Part shown: piece by piece, positions 3,736 through 22,425 of the stretch | Numbering within the stretch: position 1 is the stretch's first letter | How the letters are laid out: each line of letters starts with the position of its first letter | Virus record (IMG/VR): IMGVR_UViG_3300037119_001127 | Span: 1 to 24,862 of that record | Length of the DNA stretch: 24,862 bases | Direction: 5' to 3' (one strand) | Source: a virus | Translations under genes and position numbers: made by a program | Notes under the pieces: generated by a model | What the model saw: the letters and a program-made list of their open reading frames with translations, nothing else | Told to the model about the DNA's origin: nothing | Databases searched by the model: none

Positions 3736-3744
3736 ACTTACGTC
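3736..3744 (+). repeat. ACTTACGTC site 1 (exact)
   Basis: Exact copy in the gap between the terminator and the ATG at 3746; the only strong intergenic member. Flanks make a hyphenated palindrome, GGAC-TTAC-GTCC (3734-3745). Confidence 0.6.
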
Positions 3745-3745
3745 C

Positions 3746-4483
3746 ATGAGAACTGAAGGAGCGGTCGCTGCTGCTGGGTCTCTCGGACTGACGGTCGTTC
3801 GGGGGGATGCTGTCGAGCACATCGAAGTCCCTGAGCCTTACGCCCCATCCTGGCCGCAGCGCGAGCTTTCCTTCGCGGAGATCATCGCCTTCGGCGCCCC
3901 GCAGTACGGTCTCCCGGAGCAGCTGAACCGCTGGCGCCGGAGCAACGTCAAGAACCTCTGGCGCGGCGCGAGGCGGGTCCTCGCCGCTCGCGCGCTCAAC
4001 CTCCCGACCATGTACGGCTCGCTGTTCCTCGACGTGGTCCGGGGCAGCGGGAAGGTCCAGTCCCTGGGCCTCGTCTCGATGCGGGTCGTCACCGACGCCG
4101 GGGTGGCCTACCTGACCGCCGACATGGACAACGCCTCCGGCTCCTCGGACATCTCGCTGTTCAAGTTCCACGGGTTCGGCACCGGCACCACAGCGGAGGC
4201 GGCGTCCCAGACCGGGCTGATCACCGAACTGACCACGGAGTACGTCGTCAACTCGACGCGCCCCACCGGCTCGCAGGCGCACTCGACCAACACCTACACG
4301 ACGGTCGCCACCCTGGCCCCCGACTCCGGCGGTGTCCTGGCGATCACGGAGCACGGCGTCTTCACGGCCAACGCAGCCGGGACGCTCTGGGACCGATCGA
4401 AGTTCGCAGCGGTCAACCTCGACTCCGGGAACGGTGACTCCCTGATCGCCACTTACGTCGCAACGTTCCCAGCCGGGAGCTAG
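3746..4483 (+). CDS. Putative virion structural protein
   Basis: ATG 3746 follows the terminator; there is no strong ribosome site (only GGTGG about ten bases before) and the repeat ACTTACGTC abuts the start. The 245-residue product has a basic first part (RWRRSNVKNLWRGARRVLAARAL) and a beta-rich second part with the pattern ITELTTEYVVNSTRPTG, ITEHGVFTANAAG, LWDRSKFAAVNLDSGNGDSL, ending ATYVATFPAGS. That second half is a pattern I recall from uncharacterised phage virion proteins of marine and actinobacterial podoviruses and siphoviruses. First gene of a five-gene surface module. Exact virion position unknown. Confidence 0.65.
   Translation: MRTEGAVAAAGSLGLTVVRGDAVEHIEVPEPYAPSWPQRELSFAEIIAFGAPQYGLPEQLNRWRRSNVKNLWRGARRVLAARALNLPTMYGSLFLDVVRGSGKVQSLGLVSMRVVTDAGVAYLTADMDNASGSSDISLFKFHGFGTGTTAEAASQTGLITELTTEYVVNSTRPTGSQAHSTNTYTTVATLAPDSGGVLAITEHGVFTANAAGTLWDRSKFAAVNLDSGNGDSLIATYVATFPAGS
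4451..4459 (+). repeat. ACTTACGTC site 2 (exact)
   Basis: Exact copy in frame as ACT-TAC-GTC (Thr-Tyr-Val) near the end of the gene at 3746. Confidence 0.6.
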
Positions 4484-4484
4484 C

Positions 4485-4982
4485 GTGGGGTCGCGCGTCT
4501 ATACGATCGAGTTCACGAACAAGGCTGCAACGGCTGCGATGGCCGACTTCGATTTTTTCGAACTCGACCCCGCCGCTGACAAGCCCGTCGAGATCGTCGC
4601 CATCTTCATCGGGCAGGAGACGATGGAGGGCGACACGAACGAGGACTACGTTCGCCTCGCGATCCTGCGCTTCACGGGCGGCACGTTCACCTCCGGCGGC
4701 GAGGTCTCAACCACCCCGCGCCCGCTCGACATCAACGACGGCGCCGCCTCCGGGGCCTTCGAGGCGTTCAACGCGAACGGCGGTGCGGCTTCGTCTTCCG
4801 GTACTACACACCGGATGCATTCGGACACGTTCAACATTCGCACTGGCTACCAGATCGTGTTCCCGCCGGACCTGCGACCGAGGATTGGCGGCGTGGCGAA
4901 CGAGGCGGCGGTCGTCCGCTGCGAGTCCACGCTCGATGGCACCACCAACTTCTCCGGCACGCTCTACTTCCGCGAGTTGTGA
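4485..4982 (+). CDS. Putative virion structural protein
   Basis: GTG 4485 lies two bases after the previous stop, with GGGAG upstream. The 165-residue protein is beta-rich and acidic, with VYTIEFTNKAATAAMADFDF at the start, a middle ending in TTPRPLDINDGAASGAFEAF and a closing strand FSGTLYFREL. Pfam-like catalytic motifs are absent. Its position between two other surface-type proteins and its single-domain size suit a capsid or fibre decoration subunit. Family membership was not checked. Confidence 0.6.
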   Translation: MGSRVYTIEFTNKAATAAMADFDFFELDPAADKPVEIVAIFIGQETMEGDTNEDYVRLAILRFTGGTFTSGGEVSTTPRPLDINDGAASGAFEAFNANGGAASSSGTTHRMHSDTFNIRTGYQIVFPPDLRPRIGGVANEAAVVRCESTLDGTTNFSGTLYFREL

Positions 4983-4990
4983 GGCCGTAG

Positions 4991-5749
4991 GTGGCTGCCC
5001 CCACCTATCAGGCGATCGGGACGTTCGTCGCGAACAACTCCACGCCTGCGTCCGTTCCCTGGCCTGCCCACGTTGCCGACGATATTGGCCTCCTCATCTT
5101 GGAGAACGCGAACCAAGCAGCTACGGTCTCCGGTTGGACCGAGGTCGGCGCCTCACCGAAGGGGGTCGGGTCGGCTGGCTCCTCCTCGGCGACCGGCCTC
5201 CAGCTGTTCTGGAAGCGTGCCGCCTCCGGGGCTGAGGCGAACGCCAGCGCTGCCTACACCGGGAACCATCAGATGGGCCAGATTCTCACGGTGCGCGGAG
5301 CATGGACTGGTGGTGACCCCATCGACACGTCGGCGGGGGACTCGACCGGCAGCGCGGGGACGGCTATCGTGATCCCCGGCTCCTCCACGATCACCCCCGA
5401 CTGTCTTATCGTGGCGGTTTGCTCGACCGGGCGGGACGCGGCGTCCACCACGGAGTTCGCCAACTGGGCGAACGCGAACCTCGGCTCGATCACCGAGCGC
5501 ATCGACAAGCTCGACACCACGGCGAACGGCGGCGGGTTCGGTGTGGCGACCGGGCCGTTCACCGGGCCGGGCGCCTACGGCAACACGACGGCTGACCTCG
5601 CCAACTCCTTCGACCAGTCGCACATCTCCGTGGCGATCCGCTCCACCAACCCCAAGAGCCTCGGCGTCACCCGCCGCATCCGCTCTCTCGCAGCTGCGGA
5701 CTTCGGCGCCGTCCTCGACTACGACAGCTGGGGCGGTGTTTGGCGGTGA
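4991..5749 (+). CDS. Putative fibre or virion surface protein
   Basis: GTG 4991 is eight bases after the previous TGA. This 252-residue protein starts with TYQAIGTFVANNSTPASVPW and contains TGNHQMGQILTVRGAW, AIVIPGSSTITPDCLIVAV and SHISVAIRSTNP: alternating beta strands in a jelly-roll or Ig-like layout that I recall from phage proteins next to tail-fibre genes. No signal peptide or catalytic motif. The C-terminal 25 residues are different in character and may form a docking segment. TGA overlaps the next GTG, suggesting coupled expression with the repeat protein downstream. Confidence 0.65.
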   Translation: MAAPTYQAIGTFVANNSTPASVPWPAHVADDIGLLILENANQAATVSGWTEVGASPKGVGSAGSSSATGLQLFWKRAASGAEANASAAYTGNHQMGQILTVRGAWTGGDPIDTSAGDSTGSAGTAIVIPGSSTITPDCLIVAVCSTGRDAASTTEFANWANANLGSITERIDKLDTTANGGGFGVATGPFTGPGAYGNTTADLANSFDQSHISVAIRSTNPKSLGVTRRIRSLAAADFGAVLDYDSWGGVWR

Positions 5750-6774
5750 CGTGGCGTTACCTCTCCCCGCCCAACCCACGCAAACGGTTCGCGTTCTCGA
5801 AAGCTTCCTCCGTTGTCAACAACATAAGTCTCGACGGTTCGTCCACCCCTAGCGGGGCACTGGCGAAGTCCGTGGGCAAGCCCCTGGCCGGGTCCTCGAC
5901 CTCTTCCGGCTCTCTGGTGAGGAGCGTCACCAAGGCGCTCGCCGGTTCCGTGACGCCGTCGGGCGCTCTCGCGAAGTCGGTGACCAAGGCGTTCGCTGGG
6001 TCCTCGACTCCAGCTGGCGCGCTCGCCAAGGCCGTCGGGAAGGTCCTCGCCGCGACCCTCGAACCAGATGGCGAGGTCTTCAAGGCGGTCAACAAGTTCC
6101 TGGCTGGGTCGGTTACCCCGGTCTCCGAGGGGAACGAGTGGGAGTTCATCCCCGGGGAGGGTGGAGACGAGTTCACCATCGACCTGGGCGGTAGCGTCAC
6201 CGCTACGGGTGCGCTTGCCCGTGTCGTCGGCAAGGGGCTGAGTGGGAGCGTCACCCCGACGGGGGCGCTCGCGAAGCTCTCGAACAAGGCGTTCGCCGGG
6301 TCCTCCACCCCAGCCGGGGCGATGAACCGGGCGACGACGAAGGGCTTCGCTGGCGCGGTCTCCCCCTCCGGCGTGATTACCCGCGCGGCAGTCAAGGCTC
6401 TCGCCGGGAGCGTCTCTCCTTCCGGTGCGCTCTCGCGACTTACGTCAAAGAGCTTGAGCGGGTCGGTGACGCCCAGCGGGTCGGTGTCGAAGGCGATCTC
6501 CAAAGCGTTCGCCGGGAGCGTTGTTCCCTCCGGCTCTCTCCGCAAGGCCATCGCGAAGCTCTTCGGCGGCAGCGTCACGCCGTCCGGCAGCATCTCCCTC
6601 GATCGCCCCCGCTACCTGAGCCTCAGCGGCCAGATGAACCCACGGATCGATCTCGACGCCTTTGTGGACAGCCAACTGGACCTGGGTGCGGGAGCGGACT
6701 CGCGGGTCGATCTTCCCGGCGTCTCCAGCGGTTCCATCAACCTCGGCGGAACCCACGACACAGAGGTAGGCTGA
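5746..6774 (+). CDS. 18-residue-repeat fibre-like protein
   Basis: GTG 5746 overlaps the previous stop (GTGA); a TTG at 5740 is the alternative. The product of about 342 residues has an N-terminal basic segment (PPNPRKRFAFSK) and then about thirteen 18-residue units of the form LAGSVTPSGALAKSVTKA, interrupted once by an acidic insert (SEGNEWEFIPGEGGDEFT). Conserved Gly-Ser, Pro-x-Gly and Lys/Arg positions recur in each unit. Such tandem units are known in phage structural proteins; a beta-solenoid or elongated fibre is plausible. The C-terminal 50 residues carry shorter Asp-Leu repeats (DSQLDLGAGADSRVDL). Confidence 0.7.
   Translation: MTWRYLSPPNPRKRFAFSKASSVVNNISLDGSSTPSGALAKSVGKPLAGSSTSSGSLVRSVTKALAGSVTPSGALAKSVTKAFAGSSTPAGALAKAVGKVLAATLEPDGEVFKAVNKFLAGSVTPVSEGNEWEFIPGEGGDEFTIDLGGSVTATGALARVVGKGLSGSVTPTGALAKLSNKAFAGSSTPAGAMNRATTKGFAGAVSPSGVITRAAVKALAGSVSPSGALSRLTSKSLSGSVTPSGSVSKAISKAFAGSVVPSGSLRKAIAKLFGGSVTPSGSISLDRPRYLSLSGQMNPRIDLDAFVDSQLDLGAGADSRVDLPGVSSGSINLGGTHDTEVG
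5830..6600 (+). repeat. Tandem 54-nt coding repeats
   Basis: Region encoding the 18-residue units of the fibre-like protein. Units vary in sequence but hold GS..P.G..L.K spacing; one unit is broken by an insert near 6120-6190. The DNA of the units has drifted, so the period is clearer in protein than in bases. Confidence 0.75.
6438..6446 (+). repeat. ACTTACGTC site 3 (exact)
   Basis: Exact copy inside the repeat protein, read out of frame as CGA-CTT-ACG-TCA (Arg-Leu-Thr-Ser). It uses CTT and TCA, uncommon here. Confidence 0.6.
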
Positions 6775-6778
6775 TCCC

Positions 6779-7117
6779 ATGCCGCAGAACTCACCGATCA
6801 CCCACCGGGACCAGTTCGTCGCGGGCGACGACAAGACCCTGCGGATCACGATCGACAACGACGGCAGCATCGCCGGGTGGGCGCTCTCGTTCATCTTCAA
6901 GCGGTCGCGATTCGACGCCGACGCCGACGCCCTGTTCACCAAGACGGTGGGCGACGGGGTGACGATCTCGGACGCTGTCAACGGGGTCGTGGACGTGCAG
7001 ATCGACCGCGCCGACACAGTGGACGCGGGGCCGGGGATGTCCTACTGGTACGACCTCGTTCGCACCGACACCGGCTCTTACGCGACAGAGGCATACGGCA
7101 ACGTCGTCCTGTTGTGA
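6779..7117 (+). CDS. Small Ig-like virion protein (possible baseplate/fibre N-domain type)
   Basis: ATG 6779 has GAGGTAG about ten bases upstream, at the end of the previous gene. The 112-residue product reads DQFVAGDDKTLRITIDNDG, GWALSFIFKRS, TISDAVNGVVDVQIDRAD, SYWYDLVRTDTGSYATEAYG: a beta-sandwich pattern resembling the BppU N-terminal type (DUF2479), in which a small strand-rich domain docks receptor-binding parts. That comparison is from memory of the pattern only. It is the last gene of the surface module; a promoter follows its stop directly. Confidence 0.6.
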   Translation: MPQNSPITHRDQFVAGDDKTLRITIDNDGSIAGWALSFIFKRSRFDADADALFTKTVGDGVTISDAVNGVVDVQIDRADTVDAGPGMSYWYDLVRTDTGSYATEAYGNVVLL

Positions 7118-7118
7118 C

Positions 7119-7147
7119 TTGACGTAGCGTTTGCTCGCATGTAAGTT
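7119..7147 (+). promoter_or_regulatory. Candidate promoter TTGACG-17-TAAGTT, leaderless mRNA
   Basis: TTGACG (7119-7124), exactly 17 nt, then TAAGTT (7142-7147). The GTG at 7154 lies seven bases after the -10, where transcription should start, so the mRNA would begin at or next to the start codon. Leaderless mRNAs are common in actinobacteria. No ribosome site precedes that GTG, in agreement. Confidence 0.6.
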
Positions 7148-7153
7148 CCAGCC

Positions 7154-7474
7154 GTGCCGCCGAGCAAACGCAAGGACACGGACCCCTACGAGGGAGCAGC
7201 GGAGGACGTTGTCACAGCCGCGCTTGCGTACTCCGAAGCGATGGAGGCCAAGGGCCACGTCGCCAAGGACAGCGCTGAGGCCAAGACTCTGACCACCTCG
7301 CTCAACCGGCTGAACGCTCTCAACGCCGGACGAGCCGACGTGATCGGCGCCGCGCGGGTCGCGGTTCTCGATGACCGCTCGTCCGATGCTCGCGAGTACG
7401 ACACGCTCCGCAAGGCACTCGAAGCGGACGGGCGACTGGAGACGCCGGATGCCGGAACAGACGACGCCGCCTGA
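7154..7474 (+). CDS. 106-residue helical protein, unknown function
   Basis: GTG 7154 has no ribosome site but sits seven bases after a good -10 box, so it is probably translated from a leaderless mRNA. The protein is helical and charged (AEDVVTAALAYSEAMEAKG, KTLTTSLNRLNALNAGRADV, AREYDTLRKALEADGRLE). No known motif. It is the first of three small genes before the packaging module, and its end overlaps the next gene by 26 bases. Confidence 0.65.
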   Translation: MPPSKRKDTDPYEGAAEDVVTAALAYSEAMEAKGHVAKDSAEAKTLTTSLNRLNALNAGRADVIGAARVAVLDDRSSDAREYDTLRKALEADGRLETPDAGTDDAA

Positions 7475-8053: not shown

Positions 8054-8054
8054 T
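8027..8054 (+). promoter_or_regulatory. Strong sigma-70-like promoter TTGACG-16-TATAGT
   Basis: TTGACG (8027-8032), 16 nt, TATAGT (8049-8054). It overlaps the end of the gene at 7763. The predicted start near 8061 falls in the operator-like GTGCAGATGCAT (8053-8064). A terminator stands only about 26 nt further on. Confidence 0.65.
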
Positions 8055-8122: not shown

Positions 8123-8152
8123 TTGACAGGTTGCAAATGCACATGCTAGGTT
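8123..8152 (+). promoter_or_regulatory. Promoter for the packaging/head module (TTGACA-18-TAGGTT)
   Basis: A consensus -35, TTGACA (8123-8128), an 18-nt spacer and TAGGTT (8147-8152) follow the terminator directly; the -35 overlaps its tail. The -10 equals that of the early promoter at 258-286. The spacer carries TGCAAATGCA (8132-8141). Confidence 0.65.
8131..8142. promoter_or_regulatory. TGCAAATGCA operator-like site
   Basis: TTGCAAATGCAC in the promoter spacer; third copy of TGCANATGCA. It also contains a GTTGCA half-site (8130-8135) like those of the early dyads. Confidence 0.4.
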
Positions 8153-8199
8153 TCGCCTTGGCCTCCGAACCGTTTGGGGAAGGCGGAGAGCGGGCCACG

Positions 8200-8237: not shown

Positions 8238-8561
8238 ATGACCGTCCTCTCCGCCACTGAGGTCCCGACCTGCCCCGACTGCGGCGACTCCCACCTCGGT
8301 CGCTGCGGTGGCCTGACGTTCGCCCAGCGGCTCCGCTCTGTACGTCTCGACACTTCAGTCGTAGACTCCCGCTCACGGAAGAACTACTACGACTCCGAAC
8401 CGATCAAGGATATGTTCGGGGACGACTCCCAGGAGCGGTACATGGACGAGACGAAGGGCCGGGGCCACGTCGCCCGCGAGGACTTCGACAAGCTCTCCCC
8501 TGCCGACTTCGACTTCTACACCGGGGCCGACAAGGAGGAGGACGGCAACCGTGCCTTCTGA
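8238..8561 (+). CDS. 107-residue hypothetical protein, first gene of packaging module
   Basis: ATG 8238 follows the hairpin leader. The N-terminus holds CPDCGDSHLGRC (residues 12-23), a likely zinc-binding site. The rest is acidic and aromatic: GLTFAQRLRSVRLD, RKNYYDSEPIKDMFGDD, QERYMDETKGRGH, DFDFYTG. I recall similar short proteins with a FAxRLR...YYD...FGDD pattern in actinophages, uncharacterised. It lies directly before the terminase genes, overlapping the next start by 11 bases, so a link to packaging or head assembly is possible but not shown. Confidence 0.65.
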   Translation: MTVLSATEVPTCPDCGDSHLGRCGGLTFAQRLRSVRLDTSVVDSRSRKNYYDSEPIKDMFGDDSQERYMDETKGRGHVAREDFDKLSPADFDFYTGADKEEDGNRAF

Positions 8562-8988
8562 GACGCAGCGTCGGGTCGGTGTCGGGAACAAGCTCCCGGC
8601 GGTGAAGAAGGCCGAGATCGTCGGTGCTCTCGCGCAGGGGATGACCCTGAACGAGGCGGCGTCGTGGTGCGATGTGCCGAAGAACACCATCCAGGCCCTC
8701 CTCAACGACGACGAGTTCAGGGACCTGCTGAACACCGCTGAGGACATCGCGGTGAACACGATCCTCCAGGAGGTCGCCACCTCCGTTCGGCGTGGGATCA
8801 AGGAGCTTGGCCCGCGCTCGCTGGAGGTCCTCTCGGCGGCTCTCAGTGACGAGGACGGCAGGGTCCGCCTCCAGGCAGCCGGGATGGTCCTGCGCGGCTC
8901 AGGGATGATGGACGGCGGCAAGGAACTGAACATCCGGGTTGGGCTGGAGGGGCTGGTTGGGAACGACTCCCCAGCGTCCGGAGACTAA
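8551..8988 (+). CDS. Candidate terminase small subunit
   Basis: GTG 8551 has AAGGAGGAGG about twelve bases upstream. The 145-residue protein has an N-terminal helix-turn-helix (KKAEIVGALAQGMTLNEAA, then CDVPKNTIQALLNDDEFRDL) followed by a helical oligomerisation-like region and a C-terminal tail. Length, HTH and position directly before the large subunit fit a small terminase subunit, which binds the packaging start site and feeds DNA to the motor. The helical part (IKELGPRSLEVLSAALSDED, VRLQAAGMVLRG) is typical of phage TerS-like proteins. Call rests on layout, not on a family match. Confidence 0.55.
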   Translation: MPSETQRRVGVGNKLPAVKKAEIVGALAQGMTLNEAASWCDVPKNTIQALLNDDEFRDLLNTAEDIAVNTILQEVATSVRRGIKELGPRSLEVLSAALSDEDGRVRLQAAGMVLRGSGMMDGGKELNIRVGLEGLVGNDSPASGD

Positions 8989-10732
8989 GCTCCGGCGCCT
9001 CGTCAACGAGGCCAAGAAGGACCTCGCGCTCTACTGCAAGCGGGCGCTCCGCATCGTCACCAAGCAGGCGGAGCTTGTCCCCCTGGAGTTCAACTTCGCC
9101 CAGCGGTACGCCCATGAGCGGCTCTCGAAGCAGATGGCGGAGAAGGGCCGGATCAGGGCCATCGTCCTGAAGGCCCGGCAGGAGGGGATTAGCACTTATG
9201 TCGCAGCCCGCAACATGCGGCGGATCACCCTCTATCCGAACCAGAATGCCATGGTGGTGGCCGACCAGAAGGTCCGTGGGGCCACGCTGTTCGGCATCTA
9301 CGACACCTACTACCGGAACCTCCCGGACTCCTACCGCCCGACGAAGCGGTACACCGCCAAGGGCACGCAGCTGCACTTCGACACCCCGACCGGGATCGGT
9401 GGCCTCAACTCGAAGATCAACGTCGGCACGGCGAACGACAAGCAGACCGGACGCGCCGCCGCGATCCACGCCCTGCACGCCTCCGAGGTGGCGTGGTGGG
9501 ACGCCGCCGAGGACGTGTGGGTCGGCCTCGCGCAGTCGGTCCCGGACGAGGGCAGTGAGATCGTCATCGAGTCAACGGCGAACGGTGTCGGGAACTTCTT
9601 CCACGTCATGTGGCAGGAGGCCGAAGCGGGGACCAACGGCTACATCGCGATCTTCCTGCCGTGGTTCATCCATGAGGAGTACGCCATCCCGGTCTCCCCT
9701 GAGCAGGAGGAGGAGATCAGGAAGACGCTCACCCCGTGGGAGCGCACCGCCATGGACGAGGGCATCCCGTGGGAGGGCGACACCTGGGCGCTGTCGGTCC
9801 CCCAGGTCGCGTGGCGGCGCCGGAAGATCACCGAGGACTTCCGTGGCGACGAGCGTGGGTTCCGCCAGGAGTTCCCCTCGACGCCGCGTGAGGCTTTCCT
9901 CGTCAGCGGCAACTGCTTCTTCGATGAAGAGCGGCTGCTGGAGTACGAGGAGATGTCGGAGCGCCCGGTCCTGCGCGGCAACCTCGACCGGCGCGGTGAC
10001 TCGATCGGCCCGGTGCGGTCGGAGTTCGGGTGGCTCCGCATGTACCGCGCCCCCACGGCGAAGGGCCACTACGTCATCTTCGCCGACACCGCCGAGGGCA
10101 AGCAGTCCGGGACGCAGCGGGAGGTCTCCTTCACCGACCCCGACATGGAGCGCGGCGGGAGGGACTTCTGTTCGGCGGATGTCTTTGACGTGGTCTCTCG
10201 CACTTACGTCGCACAGCTGCACGGGCGCATGTCGCCGGAGACCTTCGCGGAGCAGCTGAATCTGCTGGGTCGCTACTACACGGTGGGGACCATGGACCGG
10301 GGCCGCAAGCCTGCCCTGATCGGGGTCGAGCAGAACCACTCGTCGGGGGAGAGCGTGCTGCGCTACCTGAAGGACGCGGCTTACCCCAGCCTGTACCACC
10401 ACCGGCACATCAACCGCCGGACGAACAAGGCAACGACCCTGCTGGGGTGGCGAACGACGGTCGAGAATCGCATGCCCATGCTGGACGAGTTTGCCGGTGC
10501 CCTAAGAGATAACTCGATCTCCTTGCCAAACGCTGACACAATACGAGAGTGCTACACGTTCATCCGGGACGACACGGGTCGCCCAGAGGCCCAGGAGGGT
10601 TGCCACGATGACCGGGTCATCTCGGCTGCCGGTGCCCTCCAGATGGCCCGGCACTCGCGTCCCCCGATCAAGTCCACCGTCGCGAGGGTGAAGGTCACAG
10701 ACTCCCCGACCGGCCTGATGGAGTACGTCTGA
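8957..10732 (+). CDS. terL: Terminase large subunit
   Basis: The packaging motor: an ATPase that drives DNA through the portal and a nuclease that cuts the concatemer. In the 591-residue product, residues 72-80 KARQEGIST are the Walker A-type loop, 174-182 HASEVAWWD the Walker B region with Glu177, and 205-210 ESTANG the coupling motif. The RNase H-like nuclease follows: FADTAEG with Asp377, IGVEQNHSSG with Glu458, and HDDR at 550-553. TTG 8957 is chosen because GGAGGGG lies six bases upstream; TTG 8939 is possible and overlaps TerS more. Two CTTACG-type sites lie inside (9194, 10202). Confidence 0.93.
   Translation: MGTTPQRPETKLRRLVNEAKKDLALYCKRALRIVTKQAELVPLEFNFAQRYAHERLSKQMAEKGRIRAIVLKARQEGISTYVAARNMRRITLYPNQNAMVVADQKVRGATLFGIYDTYYRNLPDSYRPTKRYTAKGTQLHFDTPTGIGGLNSKINVGTANDKQTGRAAAIHALHASEVAWWDAAEDVWVGLAQSVPDEGSEIVIESTANGVGNFFHVMWQEAEAGTNGYIAIFLPWFIHEEYAIPVSPEQEEEIRKTLTPWERTAMDEGIPWEGDTWALSVPQVAWRRRKITEDFRGDERGFRQEFPSTPREAFLVSGNCFFDEERLLEYEEMSERPVLRGNLDRRGDSIGPVRSEFGWLRMYRAPTAKGHYVIFADTAEGKQSGTQREVSFTDPDMERGGRDFCSADVFDVVSRTYVAQLHGRMSPETFAEQLNLLGRYYTVGTMDRGRKPALIGVEQNHSSGESVLRYLKDAAYPSLYHHRHINRRTNKATTLLGWRTTVENRMPMLDEFAGALRDNSISLPNADTIRECYTFIRDDTGRPEAQEGCHDDRVISAAGALQMARHSRPPIKSTVARVKVTDSPTGLMEYV
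9194..9202 (+). repeat. ACTTATGTC site 4 (8/9)
   Basis: One mismatch to ACTTACGTC, in frame as Thr-Tyr-Val just after the Walker A loop of the large terminase. Confidence 0.45.
10202..10210 (+). repeat. ACTTACGTC site 5 (exact)
   Basis: Exact copy inside the nuclease half of the large terminase, again read as Thr-Tyr-Val. The shared TCGCA after sites 4 and 5 extends the match (GTCGCA). Confidence 0.6.
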
Positions 10733-11058: not shown

Positions 11059-13023
11059 ATGCCCGGGGAGGAGGCTGGCTACCCGGGACTCGACCTCTAC
11101 CCGAAGACAGAGGACGAGTACGCCAAGCTCCTCCAGTGGCTTCAGCGCGCGTTCATGGCAGCCGATCGCGCGCGGCAGGACTACTACGAGAAGTGGCGGA
11201 AGTGGTACGCGCTCCGGCGCTCCAACGTCCGCCGCACCGAGGGGGACTGGCACTCCAAGGTGTTCGTCCCCTACGCCTTCTCGATCATCGAGACGATCAC
11301 GCCGAAGCTCATCTCGCAGGTCCCTGGCTTCTTGGTGAACCCGGTCTCCCCGGAGGACGTGTTCCCCTCGAAGAACATGGAACGGATGATGAACTACTGC
11401 GGCACCAACTCGAAGCCGGACCTGTACGTCGAGTTGGTGAAGGCGTACAAGTCGGCGCTGTCCTACGGCACCGGGATCATCAAGACCTACCACCAGCGGG
11501 TGACCGCTTCGACGGTGAAGCTGGTCCCGCAGATGCAGGACATCCCCGGCCCGCCGACGATGGTGCCCGACCCCGCGACGGGCGCCCCCATGCGGAACCT
11601 CGACGGCAGCCTCGTCCTGCAACCCACCGGCTCCTTGGGGCAGGTTCCCACCGGAGAGTTCGAGCGCATGCCGATGGAGCGTGTGATCTACGACGGCCCG
11701 GCGGCGCAGTGGGTGGACGTGTTCAACTTCTGGCCCGCTCCGGAAGCAGCCGACATCGAGACCGCCCGGTATGTCGTCCATCGGACGTGGCAGGAGATGT
11801 CCCACATCAAGGCCCGGGTCAAGGAGGGGGTCTACCGCTTCCCCGACGGCATGGAGCCGGGTGACATCACCTCGCAGACCCGGGAGGAACCGCTTCAGGT
11901 CCGGCAGGACGTGCTGGGCCTTGGCACCACCGACGACTCCACCCGCAAGCCGGTCGAGCTTCTGGAGTTCTGGACCGACGACGGGCGGGTGATCACTCTT
12001 GCGAACCGCGCACACATTCTGCGCGTAAGTCTCAACCCATTCGACCATCAGGAGAAGCCGTTCGCCAGGATCGTGGACTACCTGATGGAGGGCGAGTTCT
12101 GGGGCGTCGGGGAGATCGAGGCGATCGAGGGTCTTCAGGACCTGTCGAACGCTCTGGTCAACCAGCGGCTCGACAACGTCCGGCTCCTGATGAACTCGAT
12201 GTTCGCGGTGAACATCGAGGGGATCAACGACCAGCGGGAACTGGAGATGCGCCCCGGCGGCGTCATCACCGTCACGGGCGACCGCACGCCGTCTGACGTG
12301 ATCCACCGGATCGACCTGGGCGACGTGACCTCCTCGGCCTTCGCGGAGGCGGAGCAGACCGAGAGGCTGATCGAGCGGGTCTCCGGCGTCACCGCATACA
12401 CGATGGGGATCGACTCCCCGTCGATGAACGACACGGCCACGGGCGTCGGCCTCATTCAGGAGGCCGGGAACACCAAGTTCGCGCTCAAGCTCAACCTCGC
12501 CGAGATGATGGGCCTGAAGGCCCTCGCGCGGCAGTGGGGTAGCCTGATCCAGCAGTTCACCGACGAGGAGAAGTGGGTCCGCCTCCTCGGCCCCGACGGC
12601 CAGTTCACGTTCCAGTCGATCCGGCCCGACTCGATCGCCGGAGCCATGGACTTCGACATCGAGAGCGCGTCGAGCGCACAGACCGAATCGGTGCGTAAGG
12701 AGCAGGCCATGACGCTCGCGCAGGTCGTGGCCGGGATGGCGCCGCAGGCTGTTCCCCAGCTGGTGGAGGACCTGCTGTCCGCGTTCGGGAAGAAGGACCT
12801 CGCGAGCTACCTCGGCCCTGAGGCGCAGATGCGGGCGCTGATAATGGCCCAGATGAACCAGTACATGATGCAGGGAGCACCGGCCTACGGTCAGCAGCCC
12901 GCACAGCCCGGTGCGCCTGAACCTGCCATGGCCGGTCAGCAGCCGCAGGGGCAGATGGGTACGGGGCCGGAGCAGCAGCTTCAGTCCCGGCTCAACATCC
13001 CATTCCAGCAGTCGGGGCTGTAG
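11059..13023 (+). CDS. Portal protein
   Basis: The portal ring at one capsid vertex, through which terminase packages DNA and to which the tail attaches. ATG 11059 touches the previous TAG. Residues near 65-85 read WHSKVFVPYAFSIIETITPK, a hallmark of portals of P22-like and related podoviral types, followed by ALSYGTGIIKTYHQR and, in the core, EFWGVGEIEAIEGLQDLSNA and NMRLL-type wing helices. The length, 654 residues, suits a large portal. The last 60 residues are Gln/Pro/Met-rich (YMMQGAPAYGQQPAQPG), likely flexible barrel or tail. One degenerate CTTACG site lies at 12022-12030. Confidence 0.9.
   Translation: MPGEEAGYPGLDLYPKTEDEYAKLLQWLQRAFMAADRARQDYYEKWRKWYALRRSNVRRTEGDWHSKVFVPYAFSIIETITPKLISQVPGFLVNPVSPEDVFPSKNMERMMNYCGTNSKPDLYVELVKAYKSALSYGTGIIKTYHQRVTASTVKLVPQMQDIPGPPTMVPDPATGAPMRNLDGSLVLQPTGSLGQVPTGEFERMPMERVIYDGPAAQWVDVFNFWPAPEAADIETARYVVHRTWQEMSHIKARVKEGVYRFPDGMEPGDITSQTREEPLQVRQDVLGLGTTDDSTRKPVELLEFWTDDGRVITLANRAHILRVSLNPFDHQEKPFARIVDYLMEGEFWGVGEIEAIEGLQDLSNALVNQRLDNVRLLMNSMFAVNIEGINDQRELEMRPGGVITVTGDRTPSDVIHRIDLGDVTSSAFAEAEQTERLIERVSGVTAYTMGIDSPSMNDTATGVGLIQEAGNTKFALKLNLAEMMGLKALARQWGSLIQQFTDEEKWVRLLGPDGQFTFQSIRPDSIAGAMDFDIESASSAQTESVRKEQAMTLAQVVAGMAPQAVPQLVEDLLSAFGKKDLASYLGPEAQMRALIMAQMNQYMMQGAPAYGQQPAQPGAPEPAMAGQQPQGQMGTGPEQQLQSRLNIPFQQSGL
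12022..12030 (-). repeat. Degenerate CTTACG-type site in portal gene
   Basis: CGCGTAAGT is 7 of 9 to the inverted motif; identical in reverse to ACTTACGCG at 22442-22450. Confidence 0.3.
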
Positions 13024-14370: not shown

Positions 14371-15549
14371 ATGGCCCAGACCGTCATCAGGGCACCGGAG
14401 AGCACTGGCAACATCCCTGCCGCGAGGCGAGTCAGGGACGTGGCGAACCGGATCGAGTACCTCGACCCGGACATCGCGCCGCTGACGCTCATCACGCAGA
14501 AGGCGCGGACCAAGACCGCGAACAACTCCACCTTCGAGTGGATCGAGAAGGACCTCGCGGCCCGCTGGGACCAGATCAACCACGCGGACTACACGAACGA
14601 GACCTCGATCGTCGTGGACAACGGCGACTACTTCTCGGTCGGCGACGTGGTGAACGTCCCGCGCACGGCGGAGAAGATGCTGGTGACGGCGGTCGATCCG
14701 ACCACCGACGAGCTGACGGTCGTGCGGTCCTACGGGCCGACGGCGATCGGCACCCTCGTCAACAACGAGGACCTCCAGATCATCGGCAACGCCTACGCGG
14801 AAGGTGCGGTGTCCGGCTCGGCCAAGAGCCACATCGAGACCTACCCGTTCAACTACACGCAGATCACGCGGACCCCGCTCCAGATCACCCGCACGGAGAT
14901 GAACTCCGAGAACTACACCGGGGCCGACCGTCCGCGCCTGCGTGCCGAGAAGAACATCGAGCACCGCCTCGACTTGGAGCGCACCGCGCTCTTCGGCGAG
15001 CGTCTGCTCGACACCTCCTCGCCGGGGACGACCGACGGCCCAGTCCGCACCACGGGTGGGGCGTTCTACTTCCTGACGGGCGCGACGAACGAGACCGACG
15101 CCGGGGGCATCCTCTCCGCCAGCGAGATGGAGAGCTTTTGCCAGGACGTGTTCCAGCACACGGGCGCCGGGAACACCCGGCTGTTCGTGGCCTCCCCGTT
15201 GCTGATCTCTGTCTTCGACCTGATCGCCCTCGGACGCATGCAGCTGGTGCCGTCCGACAAGGTGTACGGCATGACGGTGAAGCAGTGGGTCACCGGCCAC
15301 GGCACGCTCATGATCGTCAAGCACCGCCTGCTGGAGGACGGTCCCGGCGGAGTCGGGTACGGCGGCTACGGCCTCGCGCTCGACATGGACAAGTTCATGA
15401 TCCGCCCGCTCGCGAACAGCAACACCAAGCTGTACGCGGACATTCAGGAGAACGACCGCGACGGCGTCAAGGACGAGTACCTGACCGAGGCGGGGTGGCA
15501 GATCAGTTCGCCGCTCGTCCACGGCATCCTGTCCGGCGTCACGGGCTAG
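14371..15549 (+). CDS. Major capsid protein, DUF5309-like HK97 fold
   Basis: The shell subunit. ATG 14371 follows GGAGGAGAAGG. Its 392 residues start RVRDVANRIEYLDPDIAPLT with TLITQKARTKTANNSTFEW, the hallmark opening of the DUF5309 family of major capsid proteins (HK97 fold). Further on are YPFNYTQITRTPLQITRTEM (P-domain region) and a C-terminal block HGTLMIVKHRLLED, LALDMDKFMIRPLANSNTK, QENDRDGVKDEYLTEAGWQI that is conserved in that family. Long antisense and shifted frames over it are shadows. A hairpin follows its stop, consistent with its high expression. Confidence 0.9.
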   Translation: MAQTVIRAPESTGNIPAARRVRDVANRIEYLDPDIAPLTLITQKARTKTANNSTFEWIEKDLAARWDQINHADYTNETSIVVDNGDYFSVGDVVNVPRTAEKMLVTAVDPTTDELTVVRSYGPTAIGTLVNNEDLQIIGNAYAEGAVSGSAKSHIETYPFNYTQITRTPLQITRTEMNSENYTGADRPRLRAEKNIEHRLDLERTALFGERLLDTSSPGTTDGPVRTTGGAFYFLTGATNETDAGGILSASEMESFCQDVFQHTGAGNTRLFVASPLLISVFDLIALGRMQLVPSDKVYGMTVKQWVTGHGTLMIVKHRLLEDGPGGVGYGGYGLALDMDKFMIRPLANSNTKLYADIQENDRDGVKDEYLTEAGWQISSPLVHGILSGVTG

Positions 15550-17298: not shown

Positions 17299-18825
17299 AT
17301 GCCGTTCCCCGACTACACGGACCCAAGGGAACTACAGCGGCTCGTCCTGACGTGGGAGAAGGGCCTCATGGAGGACGTGGAGCAGTCCCGCGTCCCCGTG
17401 GGCTACGCCGTCCAGCTGGAGAACTGGCGCCCCGAACCCGACGGCGGGCTGCGCGCCCGCGTGGGGTGGTCGAAGGGGTCCACCACGTCGATCCCGGCGG
17501 ACGGGGGCGGCGCCACCTACGGTACCCGGAGGATTCGCGGGATCGGCTACTGCCCGTTCACCTCGCAGCGGTACGTCGTCGGCCACGACAACGGCAACAA
17601 CCAGATCGCCCTCCTCGCGCTGCCCCGCTCGAACCTGTCAGGGGGGACGTGGGCGAGCCTCGGACTGGTGACGGCGACGAGCAACACGACGAAGTCGGTG
17701 GACTTCACGTTCGGCCTCGGCAACCTGTGGGTGACCAACCCGGGCTTCACCAAGGTCAACGCCTACGACGGCGCGAGCCTCACGTCGGTCACTGCCTCGC
17801 CAGCGAATGCGACCTGCGTCGAGTTCTGGCGCAACCGCATCTGGGCGGGCGGCGGGTCCACGGCGTACCGGGTGTACTACTCCGCGATTGACTCCGCGAC
17901 CGGCTCCACCGACTGGCCCGCCTCGAACGTCATGGACTTCGGACGGGACGACGGTGAGCAGATCGAGGACCTCGCGGTCTTCAACGACATGCTCATCGTC
18001 GGCAAGCAGAACGGGGTCTGGATCGTGGCCGGGGACAACCCCGACAACTTCCAGAAGCAGCCGATGCCCTATGTCGGCGGAACCTCCCCGGGCTGCGCGG
18101 TCGGCAAGTCGCTGCTCCCGACGCCCTACGGGCTGATCATCGTCGGCAACGAGAACGTGTGGCTCTTCGACGGCCAGCAGGCCAAGGTGATCTCGAACGC
18201 CATCGACTCCACCTTCTCGATCGCCACCACGTCTTACGTCTCAACGGCGTACATCGACCGGAAGTGCTACATCGCCGACAACGGGATCACGAACCGCATT
18301 TACGTCTTCAACGTGGAGACGCAGGCTTGGGCGGTCGAGACGCTCTCCTCGACGGCGGAGTTCCCGGGCGCCCTCATGGGCCACTTCGGGAACCTGCTGA
18401 TGGGGCCGAGTGGCGGGACGATCGGGTCGATGCTGAACTACCGCGCCCATCCCTCCTCGACCCGCATCAAGGACTACGGGGTCACCTCGGACATCGCGGA
18501 GACGTTCATCGCGAAGTCGCCGGAGCTTTGGCCCCTCGGCGCGCTGCGGCCCTCCACGCTGCGGCACATCGAGTTGATCGTCCGCCAGCGGGTGGCGACG
18601 GGGGCGATCCCCCTGGTGGTCACGCCGACGCTCGACGGGGTGGCGCAGAGCGCGATCAACGTCACGATCCCGGGAGCCACCGGCACCTACCGCTACCGGC
18701 TCGACGTGGGCTACACGGGCTACTCCCACCAGCTTCAGCTGTCCCACACGCTGGCGGCGACACAGGGGCCGATCTTCGACGTGGAGGAAACGGCGCTCCT
18801 GTTCGCCCCCGAAGGCTTCAGGTAG
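17299..18825 (+). CDS. Beta-propeller tail (nozzle-type) protein 1
   Basis: ATG 17299 follows GAGGAGGACG. The 508-residue product has the order found in podoviral tail tube or nozzle proteins: an N-terminal segment GYAVQLENWRPEPDGGLRAR, then repeated four-strand blades (RYVVGHDNGNNQIALLAL, NDMLIVGKQNGVWIVAGD, TPYGLIIVGNENVWLFDGQQ) and a C-terminal beta domain (STLRHIELIVRQRVATGAIP). P22 gp10 and T7 gp12 are functional comparators, not demonstrated homologues. It is clearly related to the next gene, sharing the RVYYS, GVWI and PTPYG motifs in the same order. It carries site 6 at 18232. Confidence 0.75.
   Translation: MPFPDYTDPRELQRLVLTWEKGLMEDVEQSRVPVGYAVQLENWRPEPDGGLRARVGWSKGSTTSIPADGGGATYGTRRIRGIGYCPFTSQRYVVGHDNGNNQIALLALPRSNLSGGTWASLGLVTATSNTTKSVDFTFGLGNLWVTNPGFTKVNAYDGASLTSVTASPANATCVEFWRNRIWAGGGSTAYRVYYSAIDSATGSTDWPASNVMDFGRDDGEQIEDLAVFNDMLIVGKQNGVWIVAGDNPDNFQKQPMPYVGGTSPGCAVGKSLLPTPYGLIIVGNENVWLFDGQQAKVISNAIDSTFSIATTSYVSTAYIDRKCYIADNGITNRIYVFNVETQAWAVETLSSTAEFPGALMGHFGNLLMGPSGGTIGSMLNYRAHPSSTRIKDYGVTSDIAETFIAKSPELWPLGALRPSTLRHIELIVRQRVATGAIPLVVTPTLDGVAQSAINVTIPGATGTYRYRLDVGYTGYSHQLQLSHTLAATQGPIFDVEETALLFAPEGFR
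18232..18240 (+). repeat. TCTTACGTC site 6 (8/9)
   Basis: One mismatch to ACTTACGTC, in frame as Ser-Tyr-Val in the first propeller gene. Confidence 0.5.
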
Positions 18826-18831
18826 GCCACG

Positions 18832-20370
18832 GTGGCTGGCGACTTCACGCCAGCTGGCAACCTCCAGCGGACGGTCCTCGACTGGTCGCGGGGGTTCTTC
18901 GCCAACCCGGAGTCGCACCTTCAGGTTCCCCAAGGCTTCGCCTCGGCACTTACGAACTGGGAGGTGGACCGGGCTGGGATGATCATGCCCCGCCCCGGCC
19001 TCACGCCCGGCAGCGGAGTGGCCGCGCTCGCCAACCCGAACACGGTGGGGATCGGCTACATCAACGGGTACTACGTCATCGTCCATCAGGGCGGGGTATC
19101 CAAGAACGTCTACTACTCTGCCGCCGCAGCGGGGTCTCCTCCGGGAGCCTGGAGCGTCGGAGAGTCGGGGGTTGGGGGGGCTGGAACGCCGGTTCTCATG
19201 GCGACCGGGAACAACTACCTTCTGTGGGGTTCCCCGGGGGACTCCGCGATCCGGTACTACAAGCCCACGGCGACCGTCGGGGCTGTGGCCGGGACGCTCC
19301 CGCTGTACCCCAACGCGATTGAGTTCTTCTCCGATCGCTTCTTCATCGGTTCCGTCCAGGGGCCGGGTGGCACGGTGCGGTACGGGCGGCTGTACTACTC
19401 CGAGGCCGGAGGAAACATCGCCGCTGAGGACTGGCCCGGTAACTTCATCGACGTGGTCGCGGACGACGGCCAGCACATCTACGGCCTCGCGGCGAACGAG
19501 GACGGCCTGTACATCGGGAAGCCGACGGGCGTCTGGCTCCTCACCGGGTCAGGTCCTTCCACGTTCGACTTGGTGAAGCTCAACGGTCCCGGTGTCCAGA
19601 TCGGAGCCGGAAGACCGATGGTCGCCACCCCCTACGGGATCGTGGTAGCGGGCCAGAAGCACGTCGCCCTGTACCGGGGCGGTGAGGCCGAGAACATCTC
19701 CAAGCAGCTGGAGTGGGGGACGCTGTTCGGGAGCGGAGGGGCCAATGTCCACATGGCCTACTCTGCCGACAAGCTCTTCATCCTCAGCGGCGGAGCCTCC
19801 TCCGGGTACGTCTACGACTTCATGACCGAGTGCTGGGCGAAGTTCGCGCTCAATGCCGGGACCTCCGCCCTGTCGAACGCTGCGATCTTCGCGCTTCCGG
19901 GGAACGCCGGGCCAGTCGTCATGGGGTTGTCGAGCAGCACCTCTGCCAATCCGATGGTCGCCCTCACCGACCTGCCGTGGGTGAACCCCGGCGCGGTGCT
20001 CGACAGCGTCGGCTCCGGGTACTTCGCGACGGCCCAGTACGCCTACACGACGGCGCCGTTCATGCCCGGTGGTGGGACTCGCCGGTTCACTCTCCGCCAT
20101 ATCGATGTGCTGTCCTTCGCGCAGGTTTCCGCCGCAGTCTCCTCGACGCTGAACTACACCGTGAAGGGGATGGACGGTTCGACTCTTACGTCAGGATCGA
20201 AGGCCATCGCCGGGGCACACAACAAGGTCACCCGGTTCCGGCTGAACCCCGGGGTCACCGACTACGCCATGTCGATCGAGTTCACCCACACGGACGGCAA
20301 CGGCCACTTCAGCCCTATCGAGATTGCCCTGCTCTGGGAGTGGGAAGGCGCCGAGGAAGGGAACGCCTAG
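18832..20370 (+). CDS. Beta-propeller tail protein 2, paralogue of its neighbour
   Basis: GTG 18832 lies six bases after the previous stop, with no strong ribosome site beyond AGGCCACG. The 512-residue protein matches the preceding one in order: GFASALTNWEVDRAGMIMPR, RLYYSEAGG, EDGLYIGKPTGVWLLTG, ATPYGIVVAGQKHVALYRGG and FTLRHIDVLSF. Sequence identity is clearly moderate, so the duplication is old. Both may form one stacked tail tube, or one ring each. It ends immediately before the deacetylase gene (TAG-GTG), in the usual position for a part that carries the spike. It contains sites at 18948 and 20184. Confidence 0.75.
   Translation: MAGDFTPAGNLQRTVLDWSRGFFANPESHLQVPQGFASALTNWEVDRAGMIMPRPGLTPGSGVAALANPNTVGIGYINGYYVIVHQGGVSKNVYYSAAAAGSPPGAWSVGESGVGGAGTPVLMATGNNYLLWGSPGDSAIRYYKPTATVGAVAGTLPLYPNAIEFFSDRFFIGSVQGPGGTVRYGRLYYSEAGGNIAAEDWPGNFIDVVADDGQHIYGLAANEDGLYIGKPTGVWLLTGSGPSTFDLVKLNGPGVQIGAGRPMVATPYGIVVAGQKHVALYRGGEAENISKQLEWGTLFGSGGANVHMAYSADKLFILSGGASSGYVYDFMTECWAKFALNAGTSALSNAAIFALPGNAGPVVMGLSSSTSANPMVALTDLPWVNPGAVLDSVGSGYFATAQYAYTTAPFMPGGGTRRFTLRHIDVLSFAQVSAAVSSTLNYTVKGMDGSTLTSGSKAIAGAHNKVTRFRLNPGVTDYAMSIEFTHTDGNGHFSPIEIALLWEWEGAEEGNA
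18948..18956 (+). repeat. Degenerate CTTACG-type site
   Basis: ACTTACGAA, 7 of 9, encodes part of Ala-Leu-Thr-Asn in the second propeller. Confidence 0.3.
20184..20192 (+). repeat. TCTTACGTC site 7 (8/9)
   Basis: One mismatch; extended match CTTACGTCAGG with site 9 at 21244. Out of frame relative to site 6 (Leu-Thr-Ser). Confidence 0.5.
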
Positions 20371-22425
20371 GTGGGCCTGAACGATGTCACCCTGAGCCTC
20401 CCGAAGAGGTTCCAGGGGCCGAACAAGCCGAACCTCATCAGGATGGCGAACACCCTGGAGCGGGCCTGGAATCGGGCGCCCAGGGGAAGCCAGCAGGTCG
20501 CGGCGAAGGGTTCGATCTGCTTCACCTTCGATGACTGCCACCCCCAGCAGATCGCCGTCCTGAACCACATGGTGGACCTGGGCCAGCGGGCGACGATCTT
20601 CGCGAACAAGGACGTGCTCGGCGACACCTTCGGGTACGCGAACACGGAGTTCGACCTCGTCATGCTCAAGCACTACAGCGACCTGGGGATGGAGATCGGC
20701 AACCACTCGTTGAACCACCTCGACATGACGGCGCTGTCGGCCTCGACCCGGGCCACGTCCCTCGACACGGTGAACAACGAACTGATCGCCGTCGGCATCC
20801 CGCAGCCGACGACGTTCGGGTATCCCTACGGCTACCGGAACGTCTTCACGGACAGGGACCTCGCGACCCGGTTCCGTATCTTCCGGTACGCCGGGATCAT
20901 GGAGTTCGACGCCCGTCAGGCGCAGGGCAACTTCAGGATCGGAGGGGTGCGGATCATCTCCGACAGCGCGTCTGTCTCCGGCCTCGGTGACTCCCTGGTT
21001 TCTGACGTAAGAGCCATGGCTCGCAAGACGCTGTCGCACCCGGTGACCTACTGCTTCTTCAACCACCTCGGCTCGACGTACACGGAGGAGGCAACCCCGG
21101 AGGAGTTCATCGACCTGCTCGACTACCTCTACGACCTGGGCATCCCTTGCATCACGATGCGCGAGGCGTTCGGCGCGATGAACATGGCGCCGAACCCCAG
21201 CTTCGAGGACGACGCCAACGATTCAGTTGGCTGGCCGTTTGAACTTACGTCAGGCCCAGGCTCCCCGACGGTGTCGATTGCGACGGTCACGCCCTACGTC
21301 GGGGGCGAGGGCGATCAGGCCCTGAAGCTCCACACGGGGAATGCCTCCGACATCGCGTACAAGGGCTACCGGCAGTCTGTGGTGGCCGGAGAGCGGTACT
21401 GGGTGTCCTGCCGGGTGTACATGGAGAACGGCCCCTCGACGCCCTCCGCCTACGCCACGGACACGTTCGCCCGCTCTGAGACCGACCAGTGGGGGACGGC
21501 CTCCGGCGGCGGAGCGTGGACGCGCCAGACCGGCACGGCAGCAGACATCGACGTTGCCTCCTCGGTCGGCACGATCCTCACCCACCCCGGGGAGACGCAC
21601 TACCTGACCCACCCGATGGACGGCGACCACCCGGAGGTGGACATCACGGTGGCGTACACCGACTCCGCCACCCCGACCGACGACGTTCTCCAGCACAGCG
21701 TCTTCCTGAAGTGGGTGGACACGACCCATTACCTCCGCGCCGCCTTCGTCTCAGGAGCGTTCGGGTACGGCGAGGTCCGGCTGTTCTTCCGCAACGGGGG
21801 TGTCGAGACCCGGGTGGACGCCCCGACCGAACCCTGGTTCCAGTCCGACGGTGACGTGACGAACGACTCGAACAACTACTACCCGAACGTGCCGGAGAAC
21901 GACACCGACAAGAGGTGGGTCCGGGTGCAGTGCGTGGACGAGTGGCCCGCTGCCGGGCAGACCACGATCCGCATGAAGTGGTGGCTCGACTCCGAGGAAG
22001 CGGAGCCGGGCTTTTGGCAGTACGTCTACGTCGATGACACCTTCTCCGGCACCTCCGGGAAGGTCGGGCTGGGAAACGTCGGAGGAGCCTCCCTCGCCGC
22101 GAACATCACCACCTCTTGGGACTCGTTCACGGTGAGCAAGTCGCAGGGCACGTCGGGCAACGGAGCGCGGCTCAAGGTGTTCGTCCTGGGGTCCAACGTC
22201 GGAGTCCTGCCGGACTTCATCTTCGACTCCCCGGTGGAGACGCCGCAGCTGGACTACAACCAGAGCACCTGGGTCCAGCTGGCGACCGATTACCCGATCA
22301 CCATGCCTGACATCGCGACGGCGATCGAGGTGCGCTGCCACCTCGAAGGTATCTCCGCCGACGCCTACTTCGACCACGTCGTCGTTGGCACGGAGAAGGG
22401 CCAGCCCGATGGCCCCTTGGGCTAG
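20371..22425 (+). CDS. Tailspike-like polysaccharide deacetylase (CE4/NodB domain)
   Basis: GTG 20371 directly follows the propeller stop. The 684-residue product has a carbohydrate esterase 4 domain at about 45-270: FTFDD with Asp54/Asp55, HSLNH (His112, His116) as the metal-binding pair, FGYPYG at 149-154, and NHLG with His232. This family removes acetyl groups from N- or O-acetylated glycans such as peptidoglycan or PNAG-type polymers. After NMAPNPSFED (271-280) comes a carbohydrate-binding-type beta domain, then DTFARSETDQWGTASGGGAW, a concanavalin-like module, and a final beta domain. No signal peptide: it is a virion part, most likely the receptor-attacking spike. Confidence 0.85.
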   Translation: MGLNDVTLSLPKRFQGPNKPNLIRMANTLERAWNRAPRGSQQVAAKGSICFTFDDCHPQQIAVLNHMVDLGQRATIFANKDVLGDTFGYANTEFDLVMLKHYSDLGMEIGNHSLNHLDMTALSASTRATSLDTVNNELIAVGIPQPTTFGYPYGYRNVFTDRDLATRFRIFRYAGIMEFDARQAQGNFRIGGVRIISDSASVSGLGDSLVSDVRAMARKTLSHPVTYCFFNHLGSTYTEEATPEEFIDLLDYLYDLGIPCITMREAFGAMNMAPNPSFEDDANDSVGWPFELTSGPGSPTVSIATVTPYVGGEGDQALKLHTGNASDIAYKGYRQSVVAGERYWVSCRVYMENGPSTPSAYATDTFARSETDQWGTASGGGAWTRQTGTAADIDVASSVGTILTHPGETHYLTHPMDGDHPEVDITVAYTDSATPTDDVLQHSVFLKWVDTTHYLRAAFVSGAFGYGEVRLFFRNGGVETRVDAPTEPWFQSDGDVTNDSNNYYPNVPENDTDKRWVRVQCVDEWPAAGQTTIRMKWWLDSEEAEPGFWQYVYVDDTFSGTSGKVGLGNVGGASLAANITTSWDSFTVSKSQGTSGNGARLKVFVLGSNVGVLPDFIFDSPVETPQLDYNQSTWVQLATDYPITMPDIATAIEVRCHLEGISADAYFDHVVVGTEKGQPDGPLG
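21004..21012 (-). repeat. TCTTACGTC site 8, inverted (8/9)
   Basis: GACGTAAGA on the + strand, read Asp-Val-Arg with uncommon GTA and AGA codons. The only strong inverted member. Confidence 0.5.
21243..21251 (+). repeat. ACTTACGTC site 9 (exact)
   Basis: Exact copy in the linker between the deacetylase domain and the binding module; out of frame as GAA-CTT-ACG-TCA. Confidence 0.6.

What the first reader, a model, noticed from the sequence alone, without database searches (positions are those of the whole stretch)
3736..21251. Dispersed 9-mer WCTTACGTC kept at DNA level through the structural genes
Five exact ACTTACGTC (3736, 4451, 6438, 10202, 21243) and four one-mismatch copies (9194, 18232, 20184, 21004 inverted) occur, plus weaker CTTACG members. 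For a sequence of about two-thirds G+C I estimate well under one exact copy by chance on both strands. Copies lie in different reading frames (Thr-Tyr-Val, Leu-Thr-Ser, Asp-Val-Arg), so protein homology does not explain them, and they force uncommon codons (CTT, TCA, GTA, AGA). Eight of nine strong copies point the same way. None lies in the early operon. Stoperator-like repressor sites of cluster A mycobacteriophages are the nearest known analogue; partition, packaging or modification sites are alternatives.
Basis: partly seen in the sequence, partly recalled or inferred. Interest (0 to 1): 0.75.

Follow-up and report, generated by a model that had tools for sequence, protein, structure and literature searches.

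The report
Dispersed 9-base site in a podovirus
A fragment of an uncultured virus of bacteria carries the same nine-letter DNA word, WCTTACGTC, eight times where about one-tenth of a copy is expected, and its placement looks more like the single-strand cut sites of a few known phages than like repressor sites.

Summary
WCTTACGTC occurs 8 times in 24,862 bp (7 forward, 1 reverse) against 0.12 expected. CTTACGTC is the most over-represented 8-mer when codons are shuffled synonymously, even with codon-junction dinucleotides kept; none of 300 shuffled genomes gives so extreme a word. The site is sharp (single substitutions near chance) and lies in two sense frames, antisense and one intergenic gap.

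The one-way orientation is what coding constraint alone predicts (null about 9:1; observed 6:1). Absence from the early operon is not significant (p = 0.27). Stoperator-like placement is rejected: 1 of 8 copies is at a gene boundary, against 24 of 27 Bxb1 sites under the same test.

The window is a podovirus from a lineage whose relatives partly carry integrases. 85 related loci (10 with similar G+C) show no such set of copies. The best analogue is the intragenic 9-bp nick sites of phage tf, which the same scans recover. I favour a nick-type recognition site at 0.33. The nickase, the nicks and strict one-strandedness are unproven.

The parts
3736..3744 (+). ACTTACGTC, the only intergenic copy, between a terminator-like hairpin and the start codon at 3746
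4451..4459 (+). ACTTACGTC inside gene 3746-4483 (frame T-Y-V)
6438..6446 (+). ACTTACGTC inside gene 5740-6774 (frame L-T-S)
9194..9202 (+). ACTTATGTC, one-mismatch copy in the large terminase gene; encodes S-T-Y-V-A-A-R, of which T-Y-V is kept in two of four relatives, so protein constraint may explain the amino acids here
10202..10210 (+). ACTTACGTC in the large terminase gene (frame T-Y-V); the T-Y residues are not shared by the relatives aligned
18232..18240 (+). TCTTACGTC inside gene 17299-18825 (frame S-Y-V)
20184..20192 (+). TCTTACGTC inside gene 18832-20370 (frame L-T-S)
21004..21012 (-). TCTTACGTC on the reverse strand inside gene 20371-22425 (sense codons GAC GTA AGA, D-V-R)
21243..21251 (+). 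ACTTACGTC inside gene 20371-22425 (frame L-T-S)
8939..10732 (+). large terminase subunit gene
   Evidence: PHROG phrog_2, E 1e-20
11059..13023 (+). portal protein gene, podovirus type
   Evidence: PHROG phrog_1216, E 3e-47
14371..15549 (+). major capsid protein gene
   Evidence: PHROG phrog_1328, E 5e-28

Best explanation
WCTTACGTC is a real recognition site for a sequence-specific DNA-acting protein, kept at scattered places along this podovirus genome regardless of gene structure. Shown: it is over-represented beyond base composition, codon usage and codon-junction effects, sharply defined, mostly intragenic and specific to this phage among the relatives examined. Inferred: a nicking endonuclease of the phage or its host recognises it and leaves localized single-strand interruptions in the virion DNA, as in phages tf, Rembedalsseter and the phiKMV group; those nicks would be sealed early in infection and remade late. 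By analogy with tf the cut would fall after the fourth base (WCTT/ACGTC), but nothing here tests that.
For: Unbiased enrichment under four nulls. Same length (9 bp) and class (non-palindromic, sharp, dispersed, mostly inside coding sequence) as tf TACT/RTGMC and Rembedalsseter WACTRTGAC, both mapped to nicks (PMC3517423, PMC11780129). Positive controls: the same word scan returns TACTGTGAC as the top 9-mer of tf (11 forward, 0 reverse) and TACTATGAC in LUZ24. Disregard of gene boundaries: 1/8 near a boundary here and 5/14 in tf, against 24/27 in Bxb1; in the tf group 88% of motifs lie in coding sequence, close to coding density. The window's portal protein is a distant relative of tf's (22.7% identity, E 4e-6).
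Against: One of eight copies is on the other strand, while all 14 tf sites are on one strand; the 6:1 coding ratio is what codon constraint predicts without any strand-specific function. Letter similarity to the tf motif is within chance (P about 0.2 in fixed register, 0.6 over shifts and strands). No nickase gene was identified; a large part of the genome is probably missing, and an HNH search of the window was negative. The same word scan does not recover the phiKMV nick motif. The relatives lack the site.
Confidence: 0.33

Rival explanations
1. A dispersed binding site of a phage DNA-binding protein, either a repressor that silences a prophage (stoperator-like) or a nucleoid, segregation or packaging protein; binding, not cutting, is the function.
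For: Integrase genes in three of six related records (G006, G009, G001) suggest a partly temperate lineage. Weak HTH-like matches in early proteins 3289-3654 and 2580-2882. One copy sits between a terminator-like hairpin and the first late gene. TTACGT is shared with the main Bxb1 site GTTACGTGTCAAG.
Against: Placement is unlike stoperators (1/8 against 24/27 at boundaries). The site is 8-9 bp and lacks the ...TCAAG half common to cluster A sites. It is very sharp for a transcription-factor site. A different dyad, GTTGCAGGCTTGCAAC, lies at 205-307 upstream of the early genes and is a likelier operator.
Confidence: 0.22
2. A host-directed sequence such as a recombination (Chi-like) or replication or segregation motif that the phage has accumulated because of host machinery.
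For: Short, sharp, non-palindromic, dispersed and orientation-tolerant within coding limits.
Against: Host unknown. The one genome-linked relative (a Chloroflexi MAG contig, possibly mis-binned) lies in an assembly with only 3 copies in 3.5 Mb. Relatives of similar G+C lack the site.
Confidence: 0.15
3. An RNA-level element: a mRNA motif CUUACGUC read by an RNA-binding protein or small RNA.
For: Seven of eight copies are in the sense strand of the structural operon.
Against: One copy is antisense; the sense bias is explained by coding constraint; local accessibility is average (0.47 against 0.49 control); no Rfam match in the window.
Confidence: 0.05
4. A statistical fluke, or an unmodelled codon-context preference of this genome.
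For: The word was picked out after reading the sequence; a few other words (AGGAAGGG, CAGCTGGC, CAAGCTCC) are also extreme under the codon null.
Against: It is the top 8-mer of the whole scan with 0/300 shuffled genomes as extreme, even with junction dinucleotides kept; copies fall in two sense frames, antisense and a non-coding gap, unlike the in-frame words of L025 (mostly V-D-D/E) and L094 (A-D-V).
Confidence: 0.1

Closest known systems
Localized single-strand interruption (nick) sites of Pseudomonas phage tf, the LUZ24 group and phage Rembedalsseter (TACT/RTGMC, WACTRTGAC)
   Same: 9-bp, sharp, non-palindromic, roughly 8-14 copies, scattered mostly inside coding sequence, podovirus with a distantly related portal protein
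   Different: Different letters (similarity within chance); one of eight copies here is on the opposite strand; nicks and nickase not shown; this lineage partly carries integrases
Nick sites of phiKMV-like phages (CGACxxxxxCCTA/CTCCGG) and T5 (R/GCGCRGG)
   Same: Dispersed site-specific DNA marks in phage genomes
   Different: Unrelated, longer or different consensus; neither tested pattern is enriched here
Stoperators of cluster A mycobacteriophages (Bxb1 GTTACG..TCAAG)
   Same: Short asymmetric repeated site over the genome; shares TTACGT with the main Bxb1 variant
   Different: 13 bp with a TCAAG half, 24 of 27 at gene boundaries or intergenic in Bxb1, oriented with transcription; here 8-9 bp and 1 of 8
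Chi sites
   Same: Short sharp non-palindromic words
   Different: Defined by host RecBCD-type recognition; host unknown here

Membership tests
Podoviral localized nick sites (tf/LUZ24 type) | Short sharp word strongly over-represented in the phage genome | tested here: met
   control tf recovered
Podoviral localized nick sites (tf/LUZ24 type) | All sites on one strand | tested here: not met
   7 forward, 1 reverse; tf 14 forward, 0 reverse
Podoviral localized nick sites (tf/LUZ24 type) | Consensus TACTRTGMC / WACTRTGAC | tested here: not met
   No copy in the window; WCTTACGTC similarity within chance
Podoviral localized nick sites (tf/LUZ24 type) | Single-strand breaks at the sites in virion DNA | not testable with these tools
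   Needs virion DNA or native long reads
Podoviral localized nick sites (tf/LUZ24 type) | Sites largely ignore gene boundaries | tested here: met
   1/8 near a boundary, genome fraction 0.09
Cluster A stoperators | Sites at gene boundaries or short intergenic gaps | tested here: not met
   1/8 here (p = 0.51) against 24/27 in Bxb1 (p = 1e-17)
Cluster A stoperators | 13-bp asymmetric site with a ...TCAAG half | tested here: not met
   Conservation stops after base 9, except a weak A at position 12; cluster A words
Cluster A stoperators | Oriented with transcription | tested here: inconclusive
   7:1, but codon constraint alone predicts about 9:1 in coding sequence
Cluster A stoperators | Cognate two-domain immunity repressor | not testable with these tools
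   Genome incomplete; only weak sub-threshold HTH matches in the window
T7-type phage RNA polymerase promoters | Single-subunit RNA polymerase gene in the lineage | tested here: inconclusive
   PF00940 not found in the window or six related records, but no control genome rang either
Chi-like host motif | Enriched in the host genome | not tested
   Host unknown

The most novel reading that the evidence does not exclude
A previously undescribed kind of dispersed genome mark: an orientation-tolerant, sharp 9-bp site maintained across the structural genes of a podovirus from a partly integrase-bearing lineage, read by a phage- or host-encoded DNA protein that is neither a tf-type nickase nor a cluster A-type repressor.
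Probability: 0.25. Interest if true: 0.65.

Novelty: new variant of a known kind. Interest (0 to 1): 0.45.

Why it matters
Localized nicks in phage DNA have been known for about 50 years without a known function, and few phage groups are known to carry them (PMC11780129). A new, unrelated 9-bp word with nick-like placement in an uncultured high-G+C podovirus would widen that set, and it shows that such sites can be found from sequence alone by a codon-aware word scan of the kind that recovers tf's motif. The boundary-placement test offers a simple way to separate stoperator-type from nick-type repeats in uncultured phages.

Tried and rejected
Protein homology as the cause: rejected by codon-preserving shuffles and by several reading frames. 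Strand bias as evidence of function: rejected, since the codon null predicts it. Early-operon avoidance and clustering: not significant. RNA-level motif: no accessibility difference, no Rfam family. T7-type promoters: no RNA_pol match, though the search had no positive control. Letter similarity to the tf motif: within chance. Relatives' own top words: G004 words cluster at 25-27 kb, apparently a repetitive tail-type gene; G001 a 12-bp tandem array; G006 TGACGCAGA mostly clustered at 29-31 kb; L025 and L094 in-frame or near in-frame codon words. Searches with no hits: phages by DNA, plasmids, viral contigs with portal, capsid and tail proteins as single queries. RedRock, Bxb1 and Alma served as stoperator controls after several other accessions were not held.

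Full report
What the window is. The window is a 24,862-bp virus record, 66.7% G+C, all main genes on the + strand. PHROG and Pfam matches identify a small terminase (8551-8988), large terminase (8939-10732), portal (11059-13023), major capsid (14371-15549) and other virion genes, and a structural-region protein with a polysaccharide deacetylase domain (20371-22425). The portal and capsid types are those of podoviruses; matches among named phages are distant (portal about 22-23%, capsid about 23-29% identity). It is probably less than two-thirds of a genome: related records with a similar gene set reach 42-46 kb (G004, G006, G009, G011).

Observation. WCTTACGTC has 8 exact copies, 7 forward and 1 reverse, against 0.12 in dinucleotide shuffles. 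To remove selection of the word after the fact I scanned all words: CTTACGTC is the top 8-mer (8 against 0.28) and ACTTACGTC the top 9-mer (5 against 0.04) over both strands. I then shuffled synonymous codons across 37 genes. Counting only words wholly in shuffled codons, CTTACGTC has 7 copies against about 0.4 and is again the most extreme 8-mer; none of 300 shuffled genomes yields any word so extreme, with or without codon-junction dinucleotides kept. The intergenic copy at 3736 is extra. In an earlier run of the shuffle the fixed copy at 3736 inflated the null mean to 1.1, and one version mis-ranked the word for the same reason; one search corrects this.

Shape of the site. Position 1 is A or T in all eight (G/C never), positions 2-9 are invariant, and flanks carry almost no further signal. 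Single-substitution variants of positions 2-9 total 3 copies against 4.7 expected; the two that clearly exceed expectation are C>T changes, one copy each.

The codon null itself expects about nine-tenths of coding copies on the + strand (0.35-0.37 forward, 0.03-0.05 reverse), so 6:1 says nothing about strand-specific function. No copy in the first 3.7 kb has probability 0.27 by chance, and the 8-kb gap 0.39. The rare codons are real: ACT, TCA, GTA and AGA are each under 5% of their amino acid's codons. The one-mismatch copy at 9194 lies in a conserved terminase stretch (S-T-Y-V-A-A-R), so its amino acids may be protein-driven; at 10202 the T-Y residues are not shared by the aligned relatives.

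Relatives. Portal, capsid and terminase searches gave 85 distinct related loci (958 kb; 52 of at least 9 kb; 10 above 60% G+C). The closest share 42-54% protein identity. WCTTACGTC is absent from seven whole related virus records, from all ten high-G+C loci, and never exceeds four copies in any other virus record searched whole, where lower G+C makes chance copies commoner. Apart from the window, only two loci passed the filter for an extreme dispersed word, and both look like codon words: L025 CGTCGATGA mostly encodes V-D-D/E and L094 GCTGATGTC fits A-D-V at every copy. The window is therefore unusual in its family, and the set of sites is not inherited from the common ancestor of these relatives, or has turned over. 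No relative is close enough to test conservation site by site.

Comparing with known kinds. Three cluster A phages and three nicked or nick-candidate podoviruses were run through the same scans. tf and LUZ24 give their 9-bp nick words as top 9-mers; phiKMV's longer, gapped motif is not recovered. Bxb1, Alma and RedRock give words belonging to elements ending in TCAAG. The sharpest contrast is placement: 24 of 27 Bxb1 sites lie within 15 bp of a gene boundary or between genes (genome fraction 0.14, p = 1e-17), 5 of 14 in tf, and 1 of 8 here (fraction 0.09, p = 0.51). In 61 tf-type phages 88% of nick motifs lie in coding sequence, close to coding density (PMC11780129), whereas stoperators are described as lying in promoters and short intergenic spaces and oriented with transcription (PMC9283540, PMC6550527). 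On length, sharpness and placement the window resembles the nick class; on strict one-strandedness and on letters it does not meet it. The letter resemblance to WACTRTGMC (5 of 9 in register) is within chance, and so may be the TTACGT shared with Bxb1.

Mechanism. I commit to a recognition site for a sequence-specific DNA-acting enzyme, most likely a nicking endonuclease, at 0.33. Shown: non-random, DNA-level, sharp, boundary-blind, phage-specific. Inferred: the protein, the cut and its timing. Integrase genes in three of six related records keep a prophage-silencing protein possible (0.22 with other binding proteins), but placement and a better operator candidate upstream of the early genes (GTTGCAGGCTTGCAAC, 205-307) speak against it.

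Limits. The genome is incomplete, the host unknown, no close relative was found, and no physical evidence of nicks is available. The RNA polymerase search had no positive control. Gene starts are my own calls from open reading frames, so boundary distances are approximate.

Noticed in passing
window 199-307: Two identical copies of AGGGTTGCAGGCTTGCAAC (205, 246) plus a related inverted arm at 283-307, upstream of the early genes: a likely operator array for a dimeric repressor.
   Followed up: partly
window 1480-2882: Gene junctions of the early operon carry repeated cassettes (AACAAGCACCAGGAAGGGGACTGATG; GAGAGGAAGGGGAGGGGAAGTGAG) that place a ribosome-binding site in the end of one gene before the next start; AGGAAGGGGA has 7 forward copies.
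   Followed up: partly
window 8138-8168: Sigma-70-like promoter TTGACA-N18-TAGGTT overlapping GGTTGCAAATGCAC, similar to the dyads at 205-307, upstream of the terminase operon (by eye).
   Followed up: no
window 3658-3712: Long G+C-rich hairpin (AGCCCCGGGCC...GGCCCGGGGCTT) between the early operon and the first late gene, just before the intergenic WCTTACGTC copy.
   Followed up: partly
window 20371-22425: Protein in the virion gene region with a polysaccharide deacetylase domain (PF01522, E 8.5e-12), possibly a capsule- or wall-modifying tail part.
   Followed up: no
L019 (G001 23658-23850): Tandem array of about 16 units of a 12-bp repeat (CGGTGCGGTCGA-like) near the end of a related contig.
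   Followed up: no
L016 (G006 29251-30814): Five spaced copies of TGACGCAGAA-like followed by ...TTCC(G/A)CG, probably a regulatory element of that relative.
   Followed up: no
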